64,000 nt of DNA, taken from positions 1 to 64,000 of the forward strand of contig NZ_SSMQ01000037.1 in the NCBI RefSeq assembly GCF_005144585.1, given 5' to 3'. Positions within the stretch are counted from its first letter, which is position 1; every line of letters begins with the position of its first letter. A program made the translations under genes and the position numbers. The stretch is from Polyangium fumosum. Lineage in GTDB: Bacteria; Myxococcota_A; Polyangia; Polyangiales; Polyangiaceae. The notes beneath the pieces are model-generated. The model had not been told where the DNA came from. It was given only the letters and a program-made list of their open reading frames with translations, and searched no databases. Below, one piece after another: positions 1,047 to 45,443 of the stretch.

Positions 1047-2209
1047 GCCATCCGGTTGATCCGTACTTCTACGCATGGACACGTGATGCGGACAGACTTG
1101 ATGCATTCGTGGCGGCGCTGGCTGCGCTCATCGAACCGGGTGGGAAAGGCAGTGTGAGCATATCTACCGCCGGGGTCAGGGGTGAATTCGAGCAGGCTGA
1201 TGTTTCGTTGGAGGAGATGATCGCCGTCCTACATTCGCGGTTCACGTCGTCGTCGGAGGCAAACATCTACATTCCTCATCGACTACCGTCCCGCGGCGGT
1301 CTAGCGAATATACAGCTACGATGCTTTGGCCCAGGTTGGTCAGGTGGGCGTTTTCCCCATGATTGTCTCGTCGCCGCGTCCGGCTACACCTATCTGCATC
1401 CTGGCGTCATCCACGTTGGCGCGACCCTTGGCGCCACGACAACGCAGGTAGCCGCAGCCGTGCTCTCGATCATGGTTCAGGAGGACATGGAGGATATCCT
1501 CGTGCGCCTTTGTGCACCTGACGATCGAAATCGCATACCCACTGGTGGGCACACGGGCACGGACGCGGGTTCATGGGGCGCTCCAATCGAATTGGCTGCA
1601 ACCTTCAACGCCGATGGGAACGTTGCGCGGGATATCGCACTCTCATGGATCTATCTCCGGGACGGGGACAGGGTTGGATATATCGCGGGCTCATCTATGG
1701 AAACACTCATGAAGCGAGTGGAAGGCGCACCACGCGGATCCACTGTCGGAGTTGCGACACGACTCCGGCGCGTTCGCGAGCATGAGGGGGCCGATTACGT
1801 GGTGGCGGCTCATGATGTGGCCATGCGAGGTACCCATGTAGGAGCCATTCGACGTGTTCCCCGTGAACGCCTGCCGGGGGACGTGGACCTGACTCGTGAG
1901 CAGGTGCTTCAGGTGCTGGAAACACCGCCCGGCGTGCTGCTCGATGCCCTCGACGCCGCAGCCGTTCCCGATGACGAGTGGCGTGCCGTGGAGCCGCTCG
2001 CACGCGAGGCCATCGAGGCGCATAAACAAGGCTCGCCCACCATCGAGGTGGACGCAATGACCGACAAGCAGCAGCGGTTCCTCGAACTCCACGCCCCCTA
2101 CCACGTCCGCCGCCTCCCGAACGGCGGCGTTCTCCTCGCGACGCACCCCTGCCGCACGCTCTGGCAGCTCTGGGCGGATGCGCTGCTTCTGCTGGGGATT
2201 CGGACGTAG
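1043..2209 (+). CDS. Putative immunity protein for the upstream toxin, unknown family
   Basis: A 388-residue soluble protein with no signal peptide or membrane segment. Its ATG overlaps the TGA of the toxin-like gene (ATGA), so translation is probably coupled. I do not recognise its family. The immunity role is inferred only from position, coupling and the absence of other neighbours. The first two thirds are less GC-rich than the last third (from about 1880), so the gene may be mosaic, with a toxin-specific front part and a more conserved tail. The TAG stop abuts a hexanucleotide array. An alternative is that it is simply a co-transcribed hypothetical protein. Confidence 0.5.
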   Translation: MSHPVDPYFYAWTRDADRLDAFVAALAALIEPGGKGSVSISTAGVRGEFEQADVSLEEMIAVLHSRFTSSSEANIYIPHRLPSRGGLANIQLRCFGPGWSGGRFPHDCLVAASGYTYLHPGVIHVGATLGATTTQVAAAVLSIMVQEDMEDILVRLCAPDDRNRIPTGGHTGTDAGSWGAPIELAATFNADGNVARDIALSWIYLRDGDRVGYIAGSSMETLMKRVEGAPRGSTVGVATRLRRVREHEGADYVVAAHDVAMRGTHVGAIRRVPRERLPGDVDLTREQVLQVLETPPGVLLDALDAAAVPDDEWRAVEPLAREAIEAHKQGSPTIEVDAMTDKQQRFLELHAPYHVRRLPNGGVLLATHPCRTLWQLWADALLLLGIRT

Positions 2210-2359
2210 GGAGCGGGAGCGGGAGCGGGAGCGGGAGCGGGAGCGGGAGCGGGAGCGGGAGCGGGGGCGGGAGCGGGAGCGGGGGCGGGAGCGGGGGCGG
2301 GAGCGGGAGCGGGAGCGGGGGCGGGGGCGGGGGCGGGAGCGGGGGCGGGAGCGGGGGCG
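2209..2359 (+). repeat. Hexanucleotide array (GGGAGC/GGGGGC)n
   Basis: About 150 bp made almost wholly of GGGAGC units with interspersed GGGGGC variants. It fills the entire gap between the stop codon of the immunity-like gene and the stop codon of the sigma factor. The strand bias (G-rich on plus) is the mirror image of the array at 3674-3857. Such G3-containing tracts could form G-quadruplexes or act as a transcription roadblock between convergent genes; this is inference. Confidence 0.9.
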
Positions 2360-3673: not shown

Positions 3674-3857
3674 TCCCGCTCCCGCTCCCGCTCCCGCTCC
3701 CGCTCCCTCGCCCCGCTCCCGCTCCCGCTCCCGCTCCCGCTCCCGCTCCCGCTCCCGCTCCCGCCCCCGCCCCCGCCCCCGCCCCCGCTCCCGCTCCCGC
3801 CCCCGCTCCCGCTCCCGCTCCCGCTCCCGCTCCCGCCTCCTCGCCCCGCTCCTCCCC
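3674..3857 (-). repeat. Hexanucleotide array (GCTCCC)n, inverted copy
   Basis: About 180 bp of CCCGCT/CCCGCC units, the reverse complement of the array at 2209-2359, ending just before the grxD start region. The two arrays face each other and enclose the sigma factor, the four-helix-bundle gene and the 14-bp inverted repeat. No gene is present here. Confidence 0.9.
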
Positions 3858-40729: not shown

Positions 40730-41989
40730 ATGGCAGGCGAACGCGACGACGAAGGCCAGGGCGAAGCGACGAAGGACCCGGCCGCGAGCAAAGAACCCAG
40801 CGAGACCGAGGCTTCGGAAGGCCCGAAGGACGGCGACGCGGGCGAGACGTCGGCGCGTGACGAGGGCTCGAAGACGAACGTGGAGCCGCCGCGCGCGGGC
40901 GCCGCGTGGGCGCGGCCGTTCGTGCGGATCGAGCGAGCGCTCACGTGGTTCGAATCGCGCATGGTCTTCCTGGTCCTGCTCGCGCTCGTGCTCGCGCTCG
41001 TCTCATGGATCTCGCTGCGCGGCATGGCCGCGCCGGTGCAAGCGGACAACGCCGCCGGGACGGTGTTTCGTGGGCTTCTCGGCGCGGCGCTCCTCGGCGC
41101 TCTGGCGCGCTTCGGGACGGCGCGCGCGAAGATCCACGACGAGACGAAGCGCGCGATCGTGACGGTCGTCGCGATGACCATCGGCGCCGCGATCGCGCCG
41201 GCGTGGCGCAAGGTCGGCGTCGAACATTTCGACGCGATCCTGAACTGGTTGCAAGAGGGATCGGCGCTCACGCTCGTCGGCGGCCTGCGCGGCGTCGCCA
41301 CGCGTCTGACGTTGCTCGTCGCGCTCATCGGCGCGTCGCTCGCGGCGGCGCGCTCGAAGCACATCAACATCGACGTCGTCCTGCGCTTCATGCAGCCGAA
41401 GCTCCGCCCCTTCGTGCACATCGCGGGCGCCCTCGCGACCGCCGCTGTCTGCTTCACCGCGGGGTTCGGCTTCTTCGACTACATCTCGATCGAGGGCTTT
41501 GGCCAGCGCAAGGACGCGCTCCTCGCGGAGAAGGTCTCGGGCGTCGCGCGCACCTCGTCGTTGCACCTCTTCGTTCTGCGCAAGCAAATGGCGCTCGATC
41601 TGCGGGCGATGCCTTCCGTCGTCTTCCAGGGCGTCCGCTGGGACGATCCTTCACGCATGAACGGTCGCGCATGGAACGCATGGCTCGACGAGGCGGGCTT
41701 CGCTGAGCGGTTCACGGCGGAGGAGCTCGCGAGCATGAAGGCGCAGCCTGGCGCTGAGGACGAGCCGCGTATCGCGATCGTGAATCTGCCGAACGAGAGC
41801 GCGCGCGGCCTGCTCGTCCACGACTTGAACCTCGTGTGGCTCTTCGGGCTCTGGATGATCGGCCTGCGCGTGCTCCTTCGCGCGCTGCTCGTCGCGTCCG
41901 GCCATGCCTCTGTCGAGCCGGACGCTGAAGAGCCGGACGAAGACGACGCCTCGAGCGCGCCGGCGGCGGCGGGGGAGGGGGCGCGATGA
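40730..41989 (+). CDS. TRAP transporter small permease (DctQ-like), enlarged
   Basis: A 419-residue membrane protein. A charged, disordered N-terminus (1-60) precedes membrane helices at about 80-102, 105-125, 140-155 and 185-205, then ARSKHINIDVVLRFMQPKLR, the conserved DctQ segment. A further helix pair and a soluble insertion (about 265-365) come before the last helix (VWLFGLWMIGLRVLLRAL). Usual DctQ proteins have about 160-230 residues, so this one is nearly doubled. ATGA overlap with the DctM gene shows coupling. No DctP gene is found in the window. Confidence 0.8.
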   Translation: MAGERDDEGQGEATKDPAASKEPSETEASEGPKDGDAGETSARDEGSKTNVEPPRAGAAWARPFVRIERALTWFESRMVFLVLLALVLALVSWISLRGMAAPVQADNAAGTVFRGLLGAALLGALARFGTARAKIHDETKRAIVTVVAMTIGAAIAPAWRKVGVEHFDAILNWLQEGSALTLVGGLRGVATRLTLLVALIGASLAAARSKHINIDVVLRFMQPKLRPFVHIAGALATAAVCFTAGFGFFDYISIEGFGQRKDALLAEKVSGVARTSSLHLFVLRKQMALDLRAMPSVVFQGVRWDDPSRMNGRAWNAWLDEAGFAERFTAEELASMKAQPGAEDEPRIAIVNLPNESARGLLVHDLNLVWLFGLWMIGLRVLLRALLVASGHASVEPDAEEPDEDDASSAPAAAGEGAR

Positions 41990-43647
41990 AATCCTGGGTG
42001 ATCGTCATCCTCCTCCTCACGCTCGTGGGGATGCCGCTCTTCGCCGTGATGGGCGGCATCTCCGTCCTGTCGTGGCTCGGCTCGGATCTGCCCGATCAGC
42101 GCTTCGTGCGGTTCATCGCGGCGAACGTGCTCGAGGACAAATTCTCGAGCTCGCCGATCCTCGTCACGATCCCGCTCTTCACGTTCGTCGGCTACTTGAT
42201 GGCCGAGTCGAAGACGCCCGATCGGATCGTGCGCGCGGCGTCGGCGGTGCTCGGGTGGATGCCTGGCGGCCTCGCGATCGTGTGCATCGTGGCGAGCGCG
42301 TTCTTCACGACGCTCACCGGTGGCAGCGGCGTCACGATCGTCGCCATCGGCGGCCTGCTTTATCCGGCGCTCCGCCGTCAGGGTTATTCGGAGAAGTTCA
42401 CGCTCGGGCTCGTCACGACGGCGGGCGCGATGGGCTTGCTCTTCTTCCCGAGCCCGCTCGTGATGGTCTACGCGTTCATCGCGGGTGTCGACGTCACGCG
42501 CGCCTACAAGGCCACGTTCCCCCCGGGCCTCCTGCTCATGGTGCTGCTCTGCGGCTATGCGTTCTGGGAGGGGCTCCGCTCGGGGATCCCGCGCGCACGC
42601 TTCGATCTCGACGAGGTAGGCAAGTCCATCTGGCACGTGAAATGGGAACTCGCGACGCCGCTGCTCGTGGCGCTCGGCCTCGTGACGGGGCTCATGGAGC
42701 TCGACGAGAGTGCTGCTGCGGCGGCTGTCTACACGCTCCTCGTGGAGGTCTTCGTTTACAAGGACCTCACGTGGCGCAAGGTCGTCAAGGTCGCGCGGGA
42801 CGCGATGACGCTGTCCGGCGCGATCATCCTCATCCTCGCCATGGCCACGGCCATGACGAACTACATCATCCAGGAGCGTATTCCGCAGGCGATCCTGGAG
42901 TGGTTCACGGCGCGCGGCATGAACGCGGCGTGGCAGTTCATCCTCGTCCTCAACGTCTTCCTGTTCATCCTCGGCATGCTGATGGATGCGTTCAGCGCGC
43001 TGCTCGTGGCGCTGCCGCTCCTCATTCCGCTCGCCGCGACGTTCCAGGTGAACCCCTTCCACCTCGCGGTGATGTTCCTCCTGAACCTCGAGATCGCCTA
43101 CGTGACCCCGCCTGTGGGGCTCAACTTGTTCATCTCGAGCTTCCGCTTCTCGCGGCCGATCGTCGATGTCTATCGCGTGGTCTTGCCCTTCGTCGCGCTG
43201 CTTGCGCTGGGGCTTGGCCTCGTGATCGTCGTGCCGTCCCTATCGAGCTTCACGATTGCGGGCGACATCGCGGAGGCGCGGGCGCAGGCTGCGCAGGACG
43301 GGGTCGCGCCGCGCGAGGCGTGGCTGCTCGAGTGCGTGCAGGAGGACACGAACAACCTCAAGCCCTGCTCCAAGGAAGACATCTCGAAGTGGGGCGCAGA
43401 CGGGCTCGGGATCGCGGCGAAGGAAGCCAAGAAGCCAAAGCCCACGGGTGACGTCGTGCCTGCGATGGACAGCGGCCCGGACGCGGGCGCGGATGCGGGC
43501 AAGGACGAGATGGATGATCTCCTGAAGCAGATGCTCGGCAGCGGCGACGCGGACGCGGGAGCGCCCGACGCGGAGGCGCCGAAGGCTGCGGATCCGATGG
43601 ACGATCTGCTGAAGGAGATGCTCGAAGCGGGGAAAGACGGCGGCTGA
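41986..43647 (+). CDS. TRAP transporter large permease (DctM-like)
   Basis: A 553-residue secondary transporter subunit with at least 11 hydrophobic helices. LFTFVGYLMAESKTPDRIVRA, FTTLTGGSGVTIVAIGGLLY and the Pro-rich IAYVTPPVGLNLFISSF segment are typical of DctM. The last 100 residues are soluble and acidic, with two MDDLLK(Q/E)ML repeats. Uptake is driven by sodium or proton gradients with a periplasmic binding protein that is not encoded here. With the TatT lipoprotein at 44517 this points to a TPR-associated TRAP (TPAT) system. Confidence 0.9.
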   Translation: MKSWVIVILLLTLVGMPLFAVMGGISVLSWLGSDLPDQRFVRFIAANVLEDKFSSSPILVTIPLFTFVGYLMAESKTPDRIVRAASAVLGWMPGGLAIVCIVASAFFTTLTGGSGVTIVAIGGLLYPALRRQGYSEKFTLGLVTTAGAMGLLFFPSPLVMVYAFIAGVDVTRAYKATFPPGLLLMVLLCGYAFWEGLRSGIPRARFDLDEVGKSIWHVKWELATPLLVALGLVTGLMELDESAAAAAVYTLLVEVFVYKDLTWRKVVKVARDAMTLSGAIILILAMATAMTNYIIQERIPQAILEWFTARGMNAAWQFILVLNVFLFILGMLMDAFSALLVALPLLIPLAATFQVNPFHLAVMFLLNLEIAYVTPPVGLNLFISSFRFSRPIVDVYRVVLPFVALLALGLGLVIVVPSLSSFTIAGDIAEARAQAAQDGVAPREAWLLECVQEDTNNLKPCSKEDISKWGADGLGIAAKEAKKPKPTGDVVPAMDSGPDAGADAGKDEMDDLLKQMLGSGDADAGAPDAEAPKAADPMDDLLKEMLEAGKDGG

Positions 43648-43663: not shown

Positions 43664-43789
43664 TGTGTTTCCGGGGCTCCGCCCCGGTCCCCGCGAGGGG
43701 CTGTCCGCCCCCTCGACCCCGGACCAGCCAGGGGCTGGACCCAGGATTGAAAAACTGCGCGATGCGCAGTTTTTCAAGCAGGCCCGGTT
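43664..43789 (+). repeat. GC-rich palindromic repeat, copy 1
   Basis: A GGGGCTCCGCCCCGG-type lead and a CCCCGGACCAGCCAGGGGCTGG palindrome-like block precede a perfect 14-bp hairpin (arms 43747-43760 and 43764-43777, loop GAT). CAGGCC follows. The copy has the same orientation as copy 2 and lies just after the DctM stop. Confidence 0.85.
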
Positions 43790-43899
43790 GAAGAGGCGGG
43801 GTGCCAGCAGGATAGAGAGCGCGACTGTTTCAGTTGGCAGGGGCGCCGCCAGTCTTGCCACACCCTGATTCCGTTCGGCATCGTCTGCGCCCCACCTGC

Positions 43900-44214
43900 G
43901 TATGCACGCCCGTCACGATTGCACGCCCCCGCCCCCGCACGGCAAAGCCCTCCCGCACGAATGCATCCCTCCACCCCGCCACGGCACATCAAGCACGTGT
44001 GACGGCACACCCCCGTCCCATGAACGCACACTCGCCCGACCCCAAGGCAGCCCATCGACGTGTGGTGGCACACGTCAACCCCATGGAGGCACGCGCCGAC
44101 CGCAGGAATGCAGCGCGCCGACGTGCAAATGCACACACTCGCTCCGCCGCGGCAGACGTTCCCGTCACGAAGGCACAAGGCCGCCCCGCGCATGCACACG
44201 GAGCCCGGGGCTCC
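43900..44214. repeat. 21-bp periodic array, 15 units, invariant GCA
   Basis: GCA occurs at 43921 and then every 21 bp without exception up to 44194 (14 of 14 positions). A first unit at 43900 reads GTA. Elsewhere the units vary, with preferences for C at positions 4 and 6 and AAG/AAT/ACG at 19-21. All plus frames and one minus frame are open. The minus frame places Cys every seventh residue; the plus frame places Ala every seventh. I cannot tell whether it is coded or a DNA-level array. It is not CRISPR-like. Confidence 0.85.
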
Positions 44215-44322
44215 GCCCCAGACCCCGCGAGGGGCTGTCCGCCCCCTCGACCCCGGACCAGCGAGGCGCTGGACCCAAGCTCGATGAACTGCGCGATGCG
44301 CAGTTCATCGAACAGGCCGGGT
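44207..44322 (+). repeat. GC-rich palindromic repeat, copy 2
   Basis: The same layout as copy 1: GGGGCTCCGCCCC lead, CCCCGGACCAGCGAGGCGCTGG block, and a perfect 14-bp hairpin (44281-44294 and 44298-44311, loop GAT), then CAGGCC. Hairpin arms differ from copy 1 at three positions, each compensated on the opposite arm. It starts where the 21-bp array ends. Confidence 0.85.
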
Positions 44323-44390: not shown

Positions 44391-44516
44391 CGTCGGCCTG
44401 TTTGAAAACCTGCGCATCGCGCAGGTTTTCAACCCTGGGTCCAGCCCCTGGCTGGTCCGGGTCCAGGGGTGGACAACCCCTGGTCGGGGCCCGGGGTGAA
44501 ACCCCGGCGCAACGCT
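44391..44516 (-). repeat. GC-rich palindromic repeat, copy 3 (inverted)
   Basis: An inverted copy whose hairpin arms are 44402-44415 and 44419-44432 (14 bp, loop ATC). One base pair differs from copy 1, again compensated. The far end reaches the stop codon of the TatT gene, so it may also serve as that transcript's 3-prime hairpin. Confidence 0.85.
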
Positions 44517-45443
44517 TCAGAACCCGCACTCGCGCATGCGCACCTTGCCGAGGTACCGCATGGCGCGGCGCTTCGCGACCACGTTTGCCAGGCGTTGCTC
44601 GGGGAGCACGTCGCCGGCTTCGACGACGGCGGTCAGCGCTTTTACGTAGCTGTCCTTGTCGCCCTTCAGGCAATGGTATTTCCCGGCGTACTGCACCTGC
44701 GTCAGGAGCATCTTGCCGCCGTGGATCGCGAGTGCTTGGTCGAAGTGCTTCTTCGCGTCGTCGAGCTCGGCCATCGCGGTGCGCGCGTGGTAGGCGCCGA
44801 GGATCGTGTGACCGTTGCCGTACATGAACTTGGGATCGAGCGCGACGGCGCGTTCCATCAGCGCGACGCCGATCCATAGATCGCCGACGGCGGCTGCGTC
44901 GTCTTTCAGGATGTTCGTCTTGCTGATCCAGGCGTAACCGGCCCAGAAGAGGGCGGGGGTGTCGCGCTCGGCGTCCGTGAACTGCGCGGTGTAGGCGCGC
45001 ATCGCGTCGTCGTTCTTGCGCGCGGCCTCGAAGCCCGGGTGATAGATCTCGAGGAGCTTAAGCCCGTACTGGAGGCCGCGGTCGTAGCCCGCGGCTGCGC
45101 GGTTTTTCAGGTACAGATAACGCGGACCTTCGAGACCTTCGGCGTCTTCGGCGTCTTCGAGCTCGTCCTCGATGAAGGCGAACGTGGCGCTCGTCCAGGT
45201 CTTGACGAGCGCGAAGAGCGCGTCCTCGTTGTCCGGGGCGAGGTAGTGCATGCCCTCGAACTGGCCGATGCCGTTGAACGCGACGACCTTCGCGATCTCG
45301 TAGTCGGTCAGCGTGTCGATCGCGGCCGAGGCTGTGGACGTGGCCTCGATCTGGCCTTCGAGGAACATCTTTTTGATGCACCCCGTGCTGGCGAGGGAGA
45401 GGGCGGAGAGCGCGAGGACGGAGAGGGTTTGGAGGGGACGCAC
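44517..45443 (-). CDS. TatT family lipoprotein (TRAP-associated TPR protein)
   Basis: A 308-residue predicted lipoprotein (lipobox LASTGC) made of helical repeats. GLQYGLKLLEIYHPGFEAA, ALFWAGYAWISKTNI and VALMERAVALDPKFMYGNGH match the TatT family, which pairs with TRAP transporters (TPAT systems) and forms trimers with ligand-carrying channels. It lies close to the DctQ/DctM genes but on the opposite strand, with a repeat-rich 870-bp gap between. The partner binding protein is missing from the window. Confidence 0.85.
   Translation of the reverse strand: MRPLQTLSVLALSALSLASTGCIKKMFLEGQIEATSTASAAIDTLTDYEIAKVVAFNGIGQFEGMHYLAPDNEDALFALVKTWTSATFAFIEDELEDAEDAEGLEGPRYLYLKNRAAAGYDRGLQYGLKLLEIYHPGFEAARKNDDAMRAYTAQFTDAERDTPALFWAGYAWISKTNILKDDAAAVGDLWIGVALMERAVALDPKFMYGNGHTILGAYHARTAMAELDDAKKHFDQALAIHGGKMLLTQVQYAGKYHCLKGDKDSYVKALTAVVEAGDVLPEQRLANVVAKRRAMRYLGKVRMRECGF

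What the first reader, a model, noticed from the sequence alone, without database searches (positions are those of the whole stretch)
43900..44214. 21-bp periodic array with 14 of 14 in-register GCA triplets
Between the TRAP and TatT genes, GCA recurs at exactly 43921 + 21n for n = 0 to 13, preceded by GTA at 43900. The bases between are mostly unrelated. 21 bp equals two B-DNA turns, so every GCA would face the same side of the helix. Alternatively it codes a peptide with Cys (minus) or Ala (plus) every seventh residue. Low identity between units with strict spacing suggests selection on phase rather than recent duplication. It fits no standard class (too short for CRISPR, too diverged for a minisatellite).
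Basis: seen in the sequence. Interest (0 to 1): 0.8.

Follow-up and report, generated by a model that had tools for sequence, protein, structure and literature searches.

The report
Dispersed 21-bp helically phased DNA array
A stretch of non-coding DNA in a soil myxobacterium carries the same three letters every 21 bases, two turns of the helix; it is one copy of a small dispersed DNA module whose apparent home copy sits in front of an unstudied helical-protein gene, a gene family that often has such an array of its own in front of it.

Summary
In detail: GCA recurs 14 of 14 times at 43921+21n; runs in 500 shuffles reached at most 6. It is one of five copies in this genome and of 12 in four genomes of the genus. 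GCA is kept in 163 of 167 units, and in-register bases vary far less than the rest (2 of 42 sites against 107 of 234). It is an old, diverged tandem array (units 42% alike outside GCA, shuffle null 32%), not unrelated sequence. It is not convincingly coding and shows almost no RNA covariation. The apparent home copy lies upstream of an unnamed, predicted all-helical protein gene, "Y". Of 31 Y-family loci, 19 have 21-, 42- or 43-bp arrays upstream, with mostly unlike units, against 5 of 197 gene-upstream and 8 of 134 intergenic controls. The window copy has no Y and lies beside a 50-bp relic of a polymorphic-toxin-like gene. Best reading: a helically phased row of protein-binding sites, dispersed as a module; binding is inferred, not shown. 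A mostly neutral minisatellite is the main rival.

The parts
43917..44200 (+). 14-unit, 21-bp-periodic array (GATT + units; GCA at 43921+21n). Dispersed module with sharp edges
   Evidence: copies with unrelated flanks share this block from GCA0-4 to about +273..+304
43868..43917 (-). About 50-bp relic of the front part of a polymorphic-toxin-like lipoprotein gene that adjoins several other copies of the array
   Evidence: 88-91% identity to copies C176, G4b, G4e; weaker (77-80%) to C123 and G4d from 43842; for the proteins
43671..43788 (+). 118-bp dispersed hairpin-bearing repeat, left copy (flanking repeat, not the array)
   Evidence: 88% identical to 44205-44322; copies at other loci
44205..44322 (+). 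118-bp dispersed hairpin-bearing repeat, right copy
44394..44461 (-). third, inverted partial copy of the flanking repeat
   Evidence: arms 94% and 82% complementary
41986..43647 (+). flanking gene: TRAP transporter DctM component
   Evidence: PF06808 E 7e-73
44517..45443 (-). flanking gene, convergent: TAtT, TRAP transporter T-component
   Evidence: PF16811 E 1.2e-39

Best explanation
The block is a non-coding, helically phased array: 14 units of exactly 21 bp (two turns of B-DNA), each presenting a conserved GCA core on the same face of the helix, most likely as a row of binding sites for a protein that assembles along that face. It grew by unit duplication and then diverged, least at the core and not in spacing (shown). 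Its home is probably the upstream region of gene Y1, whose family is often preceded by 21/42/43-bp arrays (shown as an association); Y or a regulator of Y is the likely binder (inferred). The array has spread as a discrete block of about 284 bp to other loci, in several cases together with the front of a polymorphic-toxin-like lipoprotein gene (shown). The window copy is such a dispersed copy between two convergent genes, with the toxin-like gene reduced to about 50 bp; whether it still acts in place is open.
For: GCA in register in 163 of 167 units over 12 copies in 4 genomes. Constraint on GCA: 2/42 variable vs 107/234 (Fisher 7e-8); changes private to one copy hit GCA 1 time in 52 (15% expected, p 0.002), in the 8 Y-less copies 1 in 35 (p 0.023); also base-matched. 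Y family: 19 of 31 loci with upstream lag 21/42/43 identity >= 0.55 within 900 bp, and no other lag 10-60 reaches that there; controls 5 of 197 gene-upstream stretches and 8 of 134 intergenic regions (Fisher 4e-11, by groups 10 of 15, 9e-8); downstream of Y 0 of 13. Unit sequences are mostly unlike between Y groups. In a genus other than the window's (G008) the array before Y also has GCA in register, in 11 of 13 units. In the 6 genomes of the genus, array family and Y1 are both present in 4 and both missing in 2. Periods of non-coding arrays sampled in G047 and G004 fall in the 20-22/41-44/62-65 class in 10 of 15 cases (19% expected, p 6e-5). Sharp module edges. Five of six Y proteins checked have pI above 8.
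Against: No protein has been shown to bind. Y matches no family in Pfam, NCBIfam or PHROGs convincingly, and its helical-bundle model (pTM only 0.52) has no clear PDB match. Arrays of this period also occur away from any Y gene (8 of 134 intergenic regions; none of 14 other array loci L168-L181 had a Y gene). 7 of 31 Y loci show no sign of one and 5 more are borderline. The constraint among Y-less copies is only moderately significant, and p is 0.068 if the three with an adjoining toxin-like gene are left out too. No sigma-70-like promoter was found around the window copy. Y loci are related to each other, controls come from two genomes only, and the threshold was set after seeing the data.
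Confidence: 0.5

Rival explanations
1. Mostly neutral old minisatellite: tandem arrays with a birth bias towards about 21-bp multiples arise in intergenic DNA, and this one was copied around the genome with its neighbours. The GCA register is ancestral and only partly constrained.
For: Units are related by descent (0.422 vs 0.317 null) and G001 shows a 63-bp unit duplication; one G004 copy lacks exactly one unit. Arrays of this period lie in co-directional, divergent and convergent gaps alike (4, 2 and 2 of 8). Constraint in the Y-less copies alone is only moderately significant.
Against: Strong, base-matched conservation of GCA, no length change other than one whole unit in the alignment of 12 copies, and the excess upstream of Y genes.
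Confidence: 0.3
2. The array is a recombination or mobility module: sharp-edged DNA that helps polymorphic-toxin cassettes and hairpin repeats move or swap.
For: Sharp edges in copies with unrelated flanks. Toxin-like genes beside arrays C176 and C123 share their N-terminal part but differ at the C-terminus and in the neighbouring gene. Toxin-gene relic next to the window copy.
Against: G001 and G002 have the array upstream of Y without the toxin-like gene, so the array looks older. The own genome has 22 matches to the toxin N-terminus, partial ones included, but only two array copies with a full-length one. No inverted ends or target duplications were noticed by eye; not tested systematically.
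Confidence: 0.1
3. Protein-coding heptad repeat (Cys every seventh residue on minus, or Ala on plus).
For: The plus Ala frame is open in 12 of 12 copies, the minus Cys frame and one other plus frame (pN/pS 0.79) in 11 of 12. Diversity by position in the minus-1 frame looks coding-like (0.14, 0.09, 0.17).
Against: pN/pS 1.80 (Ala frame), 0.82 (Cys frame), 0.71 (minus-1 frame, which holds a stop in 11 of 12 copies) over 10 copies; no null was computed for these values. Listed ORFs over the array differ in their ends from copy to copy. Non-coding arrays of the wider class with 22 and 43 bp.
Confidence: 0.05
4. Structured RNA made of repeated hairpins.
For: The alignment folds, e.g. a hairpin around CGACGTGTG...CACACGTCG at units 6-7, kept in most copies.
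Against: 2 of 82 (minus) and 1 of 52 (plus) predicted pairs show any kept change on both sides; covariation term 0.16 and 1.23 kcal/mol. None of the three Rfam matches up to E 1 reaches its gathering score.
Confidence: 0.05

Closest known systems
Plasmid iteron arrays upstream of rep genes (recalled)
   Same: Direct repeats of about 19-22 bp, spaced by about two helical turns, upstream of the gene of their (here only likely) partner protein
   Different: On large genome contigs; units far more diverged; 43-bp forms; dispersed copies without the gene; no convincing family match for Y and no match in 72,556 plasmid records for one Y protein
Minisatellites / VNTR arrays
   Same: Tandem units of one length; gain and loss by whole units (63-bp duplication in G001, one unit missing in a G004 copy)
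   Different: Strict 21-bp period with a conserved core, old divergence with unit order kept between copies, excess upstream of one gene family
Dispersed intergenic repeats (REP/BIME, MITE; recalled)
   Same: Multi-copy intergenic non-coding blocks, here often beside hairpin-bearing repeats
   Different: No inverted ends recognised by eye; internal tandem structure; low copy number (1-5 full copies per genome here)
Polymorphic toxin / immunity cassettes (Tox-REase-9-like domain, DUF4304 neighbour)
   Same: Adjoin several array copies, constant N-terminus and variable C-terminus
   Different: A neighbour, not the array itself; the array also stands at the Y locus without it

Membership tests
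Tandem repeat / minisatellite | Units descended from each other by tandem duplication | tested here: met
   unit identity outside GCA 0.422 vs 0.317 null; G001 units 4-6 vs 7-9: 1.0, 0.86, 1.0
Tandem repeat / minisatellite | High similarity between units | tested here: not met
   42% outside GCA; TRF lists no 21-bp array there at score 30
Plasmid iterons | Direct repeats of about two helical turns next to the gene of a binding initiator | tested here: inconclusive
   Arrays upstream of Y at 19 of 31 loci; binding and initiator role not shown
Plasmid iterons | Partner is a replication initiator family on replicons | tested here: inconclusive
   Y: no Pfam match for the one member scanned, no plausible NCBIfam match in 13 members, no plasmid record; fold match inconclusive
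CRISPR array | Conserved repeats with unique spacers | tested here: not met
   Only GCA is constant in each 21-bp unit
CRISPR array | Neighbouring cas genes | tested here: inconclusive
   Only the two flanking genes were named; both belong to a TRAP transporter
Heptad-repeat protein gene | Purifying selection in one open frame | tested here: not met
   pN/pS 0.71-1.80 in six frames, no null computed; the frame with the lowest value has stops in 11 of 12 copies
Structured non-coding RNA | Compensatory base-pair changes | tested here: not met
   2 of 82 and 1 of 52 pairs
MITE / REP-type mobile repeat | Dispersed copies with defined ends | tested here: met
   edges at GCA0-4 and about +273..+304
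MITE / REP-type mobile repeat | Terminal inverted repeats, target duplication, partner transposase | not tested
   Only looked at by eye; none noticed

The most novel reading that the evidence does not exclude
This myxobacterial family (Polyangiaceae, by the named carriers) has a previously undescribed two-part system: a diversifying helical protein family (Y), many members paired with their own helically phased 21/42/43-bp DNA array that they recognise; the arrays also spread through the genome as portable sites, so that neighbouring genes (among them polymorphic-toxin-like ones) can come under the same protein.
Probability: 0.25. Interest if true: 0.85.

Novelty: new variant of a known kind. 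Interest (0 to 1): 0.6.

Why it matters
If confirmed, it links a gene family with no known function to a recurring, physically meaningful DNA architecture (two or four helical turns) that appears with different sequences next to different family members. That would be a natural series for studying how a protein and a phased operator array evolve together, and how such arrays spread as portable regulatory DNA in very large bacterial genomes.

Tried and rejected
Peptide coding: six-frame stops in 12 copies and pN/pS over 10 copies (G001 and the gapped G004 copy left out), not supported. RNA: alignments on both strands and Rfam, not supported. Similar-looking GCA/21 arrays found by pattern are often coding repeats: the own genome has 112 + 88 matches (only the first part listed), but the reversed control pattern has more (147 + 148), so the pattern alone proves nothing; only homology and Y linkage count. 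C11 at 108.4 kb lies in what I read from its sequence as a DUF2169-like gene (recalled name, no family search), C147 looks lysine/alanine-rich coding; both left out of all counts. G023, a weak 50-bp hit, was left out after no GCA/21 array was seen there. Y as a plasmid gene: no record. Other 21-bp arrays near a Y gene: 14 other loci (L168-L181, some probably coding) searched with a Y profile, 0 hits. Fold search: no Foldseek match at E <= 0.001; VIA-align best Z 9.8 to a four-helix bundle, within the range of common arrangements.

Counts to read with care. The 15 groups were drawn by eye. The threshold 0.55 was set after looking; with 0.60 it is 16 of 31 against 4 of 197. Two Y1 loci with clear GCA arrays (L054, L057) fall just below it. 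One Y locus (L150) has no lag-21 signal but a lag-18/36 repeat about 1.1 kb upstream, outside the 900 bp scored. The intergenic control scores whole gaps of at least 230 bp plus 50 bp each side, not 900-bp stretches. The gene calls behind the controls come from a simple GC-by-position script; for two dispersed G047 arrays (L169, L171) that script calls an ORF over the array, and coding status there is open. The 20-kb samples lie at positions I picked without looking, not at random draws. One search covered the genome collection with one peptide pattern only, so its 14 loci are not a census.

Literature: searches (PMC library) listed no paper that looked to be about such arrays; of PMC3696898 I saw three passages, of the others only listings.

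Full report
What is there. GCA stands at 43921 + 21n for n = 0 to 13, with GTA at 43900. None of 500 shuffles of the region gave a run above 6. The array lies between the convergent genes for a TRAP transporter DctM component (41986-43647, +) and a TAtT component (44517-45443, -), and between two copies of a 118-bp hairpin-bearing repeat (43671-43788 and 44205-44322, 88% identical) with a third, inverted partial copy at 44394-44461.

It is a family. A DNA search found the block five times in the own genome (contigs C131 = window, C187, C176, C114, C123), and among 30 genomes searched five times in G004 and once each in G002 and G001 (the last at 70% identity); four short matches and a weak one in G023 were set aside. 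Laid out in register, the copies keep unit order: units with the same index are 85% alike between copies outside GCA, units with different index 44% (10 copies). GCA is kept in 163 of 167 units of the 12 copies. The alignment holds one length change, a whole missing unit in one G004 copy, and in G001 three units are a tandem duplicate of the three before.

It is a diverged tandem array, with constraint on its core. Units of the window copy are 42% alike outside GCA against 32% expected from shuffled units. Across 11 copies (G001 left out) 2 of 42 in-register GCA bases vary against 107 of 234 others (Fisher 7e-8), also when matched by base. Changes private to one copy hit GCA once in 52 (15% expected, p 0.002); in the eight copies without a Y gene once in 35 (p 0.023); in the five of these without a full-length toxin-like gene once in 27 (p 0.068). 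So in-place constraint on copies such as the window's is suggested, not proven.

It is not convincingly a gene or an RNA. In six frames pN/pS is 0.71 to 1.80 over 10 copies (no null computed), and the lowest frame holds stops in 11 of 12 copies; the Cys frame is open in 11 of 12 copies with pN/pS 0.82, the Ala frame in 12 of 12 with 1.80. Variable sites by phase are 39, 42 and 25 of 92, a difference that fits the minus-1 frame best, the one with stops; I leave it unexplained. RNA folding of the alignment gives almost no compensatory change.

It is a discrete module. Copies with unrelated surroundings share the block from 4 bases before the first GCA to about +273..+304. In C176, C123, G4b, G4d and G4e the minus side carries the start of a lipoprotein-like gene 115-119 bases away (C123: 161). 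In C176 and C123 it has the same N-terminal part but a different C-terminus, Tox-REase-9-like in C123 (E 2.5e-4, below Pfam's cut-off), whose next gene has DUF4304. That reads as a polymorphic toxin-immunity pair (inference). In G4d and G4e the reading departs from the common one part-way. The window keeps only about 50 bases of that gene (43868-43917). The toxin family itself is larger (22 matches in the own genome, partial ones included), while the own genome has five full array copies.

Where it comes from. In G001, G002, C123 and G004:368k the array ends about 80 bases upstream of a 257-261 aa gene, here called Y1. In the six genomes of the genus, array and Y1 go together: both in four, neither in two, whose best Y matches are only about 50% identical. 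Y1 has no Pfam match, and 13 Y members have no plausible NCBIfam or PHROG match. AlphaFold predicts an all-helical protein (mean pLDDT 84.7, pTM 0.52) without a clear PDB match. Five of six Y proteins checked have pI above 8, one 6.2.

The unexpected result. Y genes often have arrays in front. Of 31 Y loci, 19 reach 0.55 identity at lag 21, 42 or 43 within 900 bases upstream, and no other lag from 10 to 60 does so there; 7 show no sign and 5 are borderline. 5 of 197 other genes reach it, 8 of 134 intergenic regions of at least 230 bp, and 0 of 13 stretches downstream of Y. Unit sequences are mostly unlike between Y groups, for instance TGCTGCGAGCCTCCCGGAGTT, TGACCCGGAGTCAGTTCCCGG, ACAGCGGTCGCTTCGCGAGTT and a 43-bp unit; by my grouping 10 of 15 groups have one (Fisher 9e-8 against the intergenic control). 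In G008, outside the window's genus, the array before Y also has GCA in register, in 11 of 13 units. Named Y carriers are three Polyangium strains, a Byssovorax MAG, Minicystis rosea and two unclassified MAGs. In G047 the array type of the Y gene at 8.30 Mb recurs at 0.54 and 1.52 Mb without a Y gene, as in the window's family. The CAGCGGTCG type was found at Y loci in five genomes, and related arrays in G003:C16 and G001:C10 without a Y gene.

A wider setting. In 40 stretches of 20 kb of G047 and G004, 10 of 15 intergenic regions with a tandem array have a period of 20-22, 41-44 or 62-65 bp (19% expected, p 6e-5). In 20 stretches of two other genomes (G035, same family; G048, same order) it is 3 of 12; over all four 13 of 27 (p 5e-4). 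Periods such as 22 and 43 cannot keep a reading frame, which speaks for helical spacing as the common factor. Many such arrays are not near a Y gene, so Y would be one partner, not the sole cause.

Mechanism. Two helical turns per unit put each conserved core on one face of the DNA, which suits a protein that binds each unit and polymerises or cooperates along it. The position in front of Y suggests control of Y, perhaps by Y itself. Copies elsewhere would be portable sites or leftovers. Steps shown: array, relatedness of units, core constraint, module edges, Y linkage. Steps inferred: protein binding, identity of the binder, effect on expression. The main rival is a mostly neutral minisatellite born with a helical-length bias; the constraint on GCA and the excess at Y genes weigh against it but do not exclude it.

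Verdict. Novelty: new variant of a known kind (iteron- or minisatellite-like arrays), with a bolder reading of a protein family paired with its own arrays left open.

Noticed in passing
window 43671-43788, 44205-44322, 44394-44461: Hairpin-bearing 118-bp dispersed repeat (GGGGCTCCGCCCC... with a 14-bp perfect hairpin) flanking the array; also close beside 6 of the 11 other array copies (C187, C176, C114, G4b, G4c, G4e)
   Followed up: partly
L048, L050 (G000:C176 and C123): Large polymorphic-toxin-like lipoprotein family with common N-terminus MAWLSNRFVRLWLL... and variable C-terminus, 22 matches in the own genome, partial ones included
   Followed up: partly
L245:6301-6968, L261:5515-5969, L206:12269-12626, L215:16402-16702: Long arrays of 21-22 and 43 bp between called genes in G047 and G004, away from known Y genes
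   Followed up: partly
window 43917-44200 and copies: Between-copy variation is lower at every third base (25 of 92 sites vs 39 and 42) although the fitting reading frame has stops in 11 of 12 copies
   Followed up: partly
L175:1-455 (G042): 21-bp array whose reading gives heptads such as GNALPPR/GNALPDR; coding or not is unclear
   Followed up: no
L210:3065-3758 (G047): Tandem rows of period 74-77 sharing CCCGCAGTCCGCTCCCCGCTGATGAGGGGATTGAAAC, which looks like a CRISPR array
   Followed up: no
window 2209-2359 and 3674-3852: Long 6-bp tandem repeats (GGGAGC and TCCCGC units)
   Followed up: no
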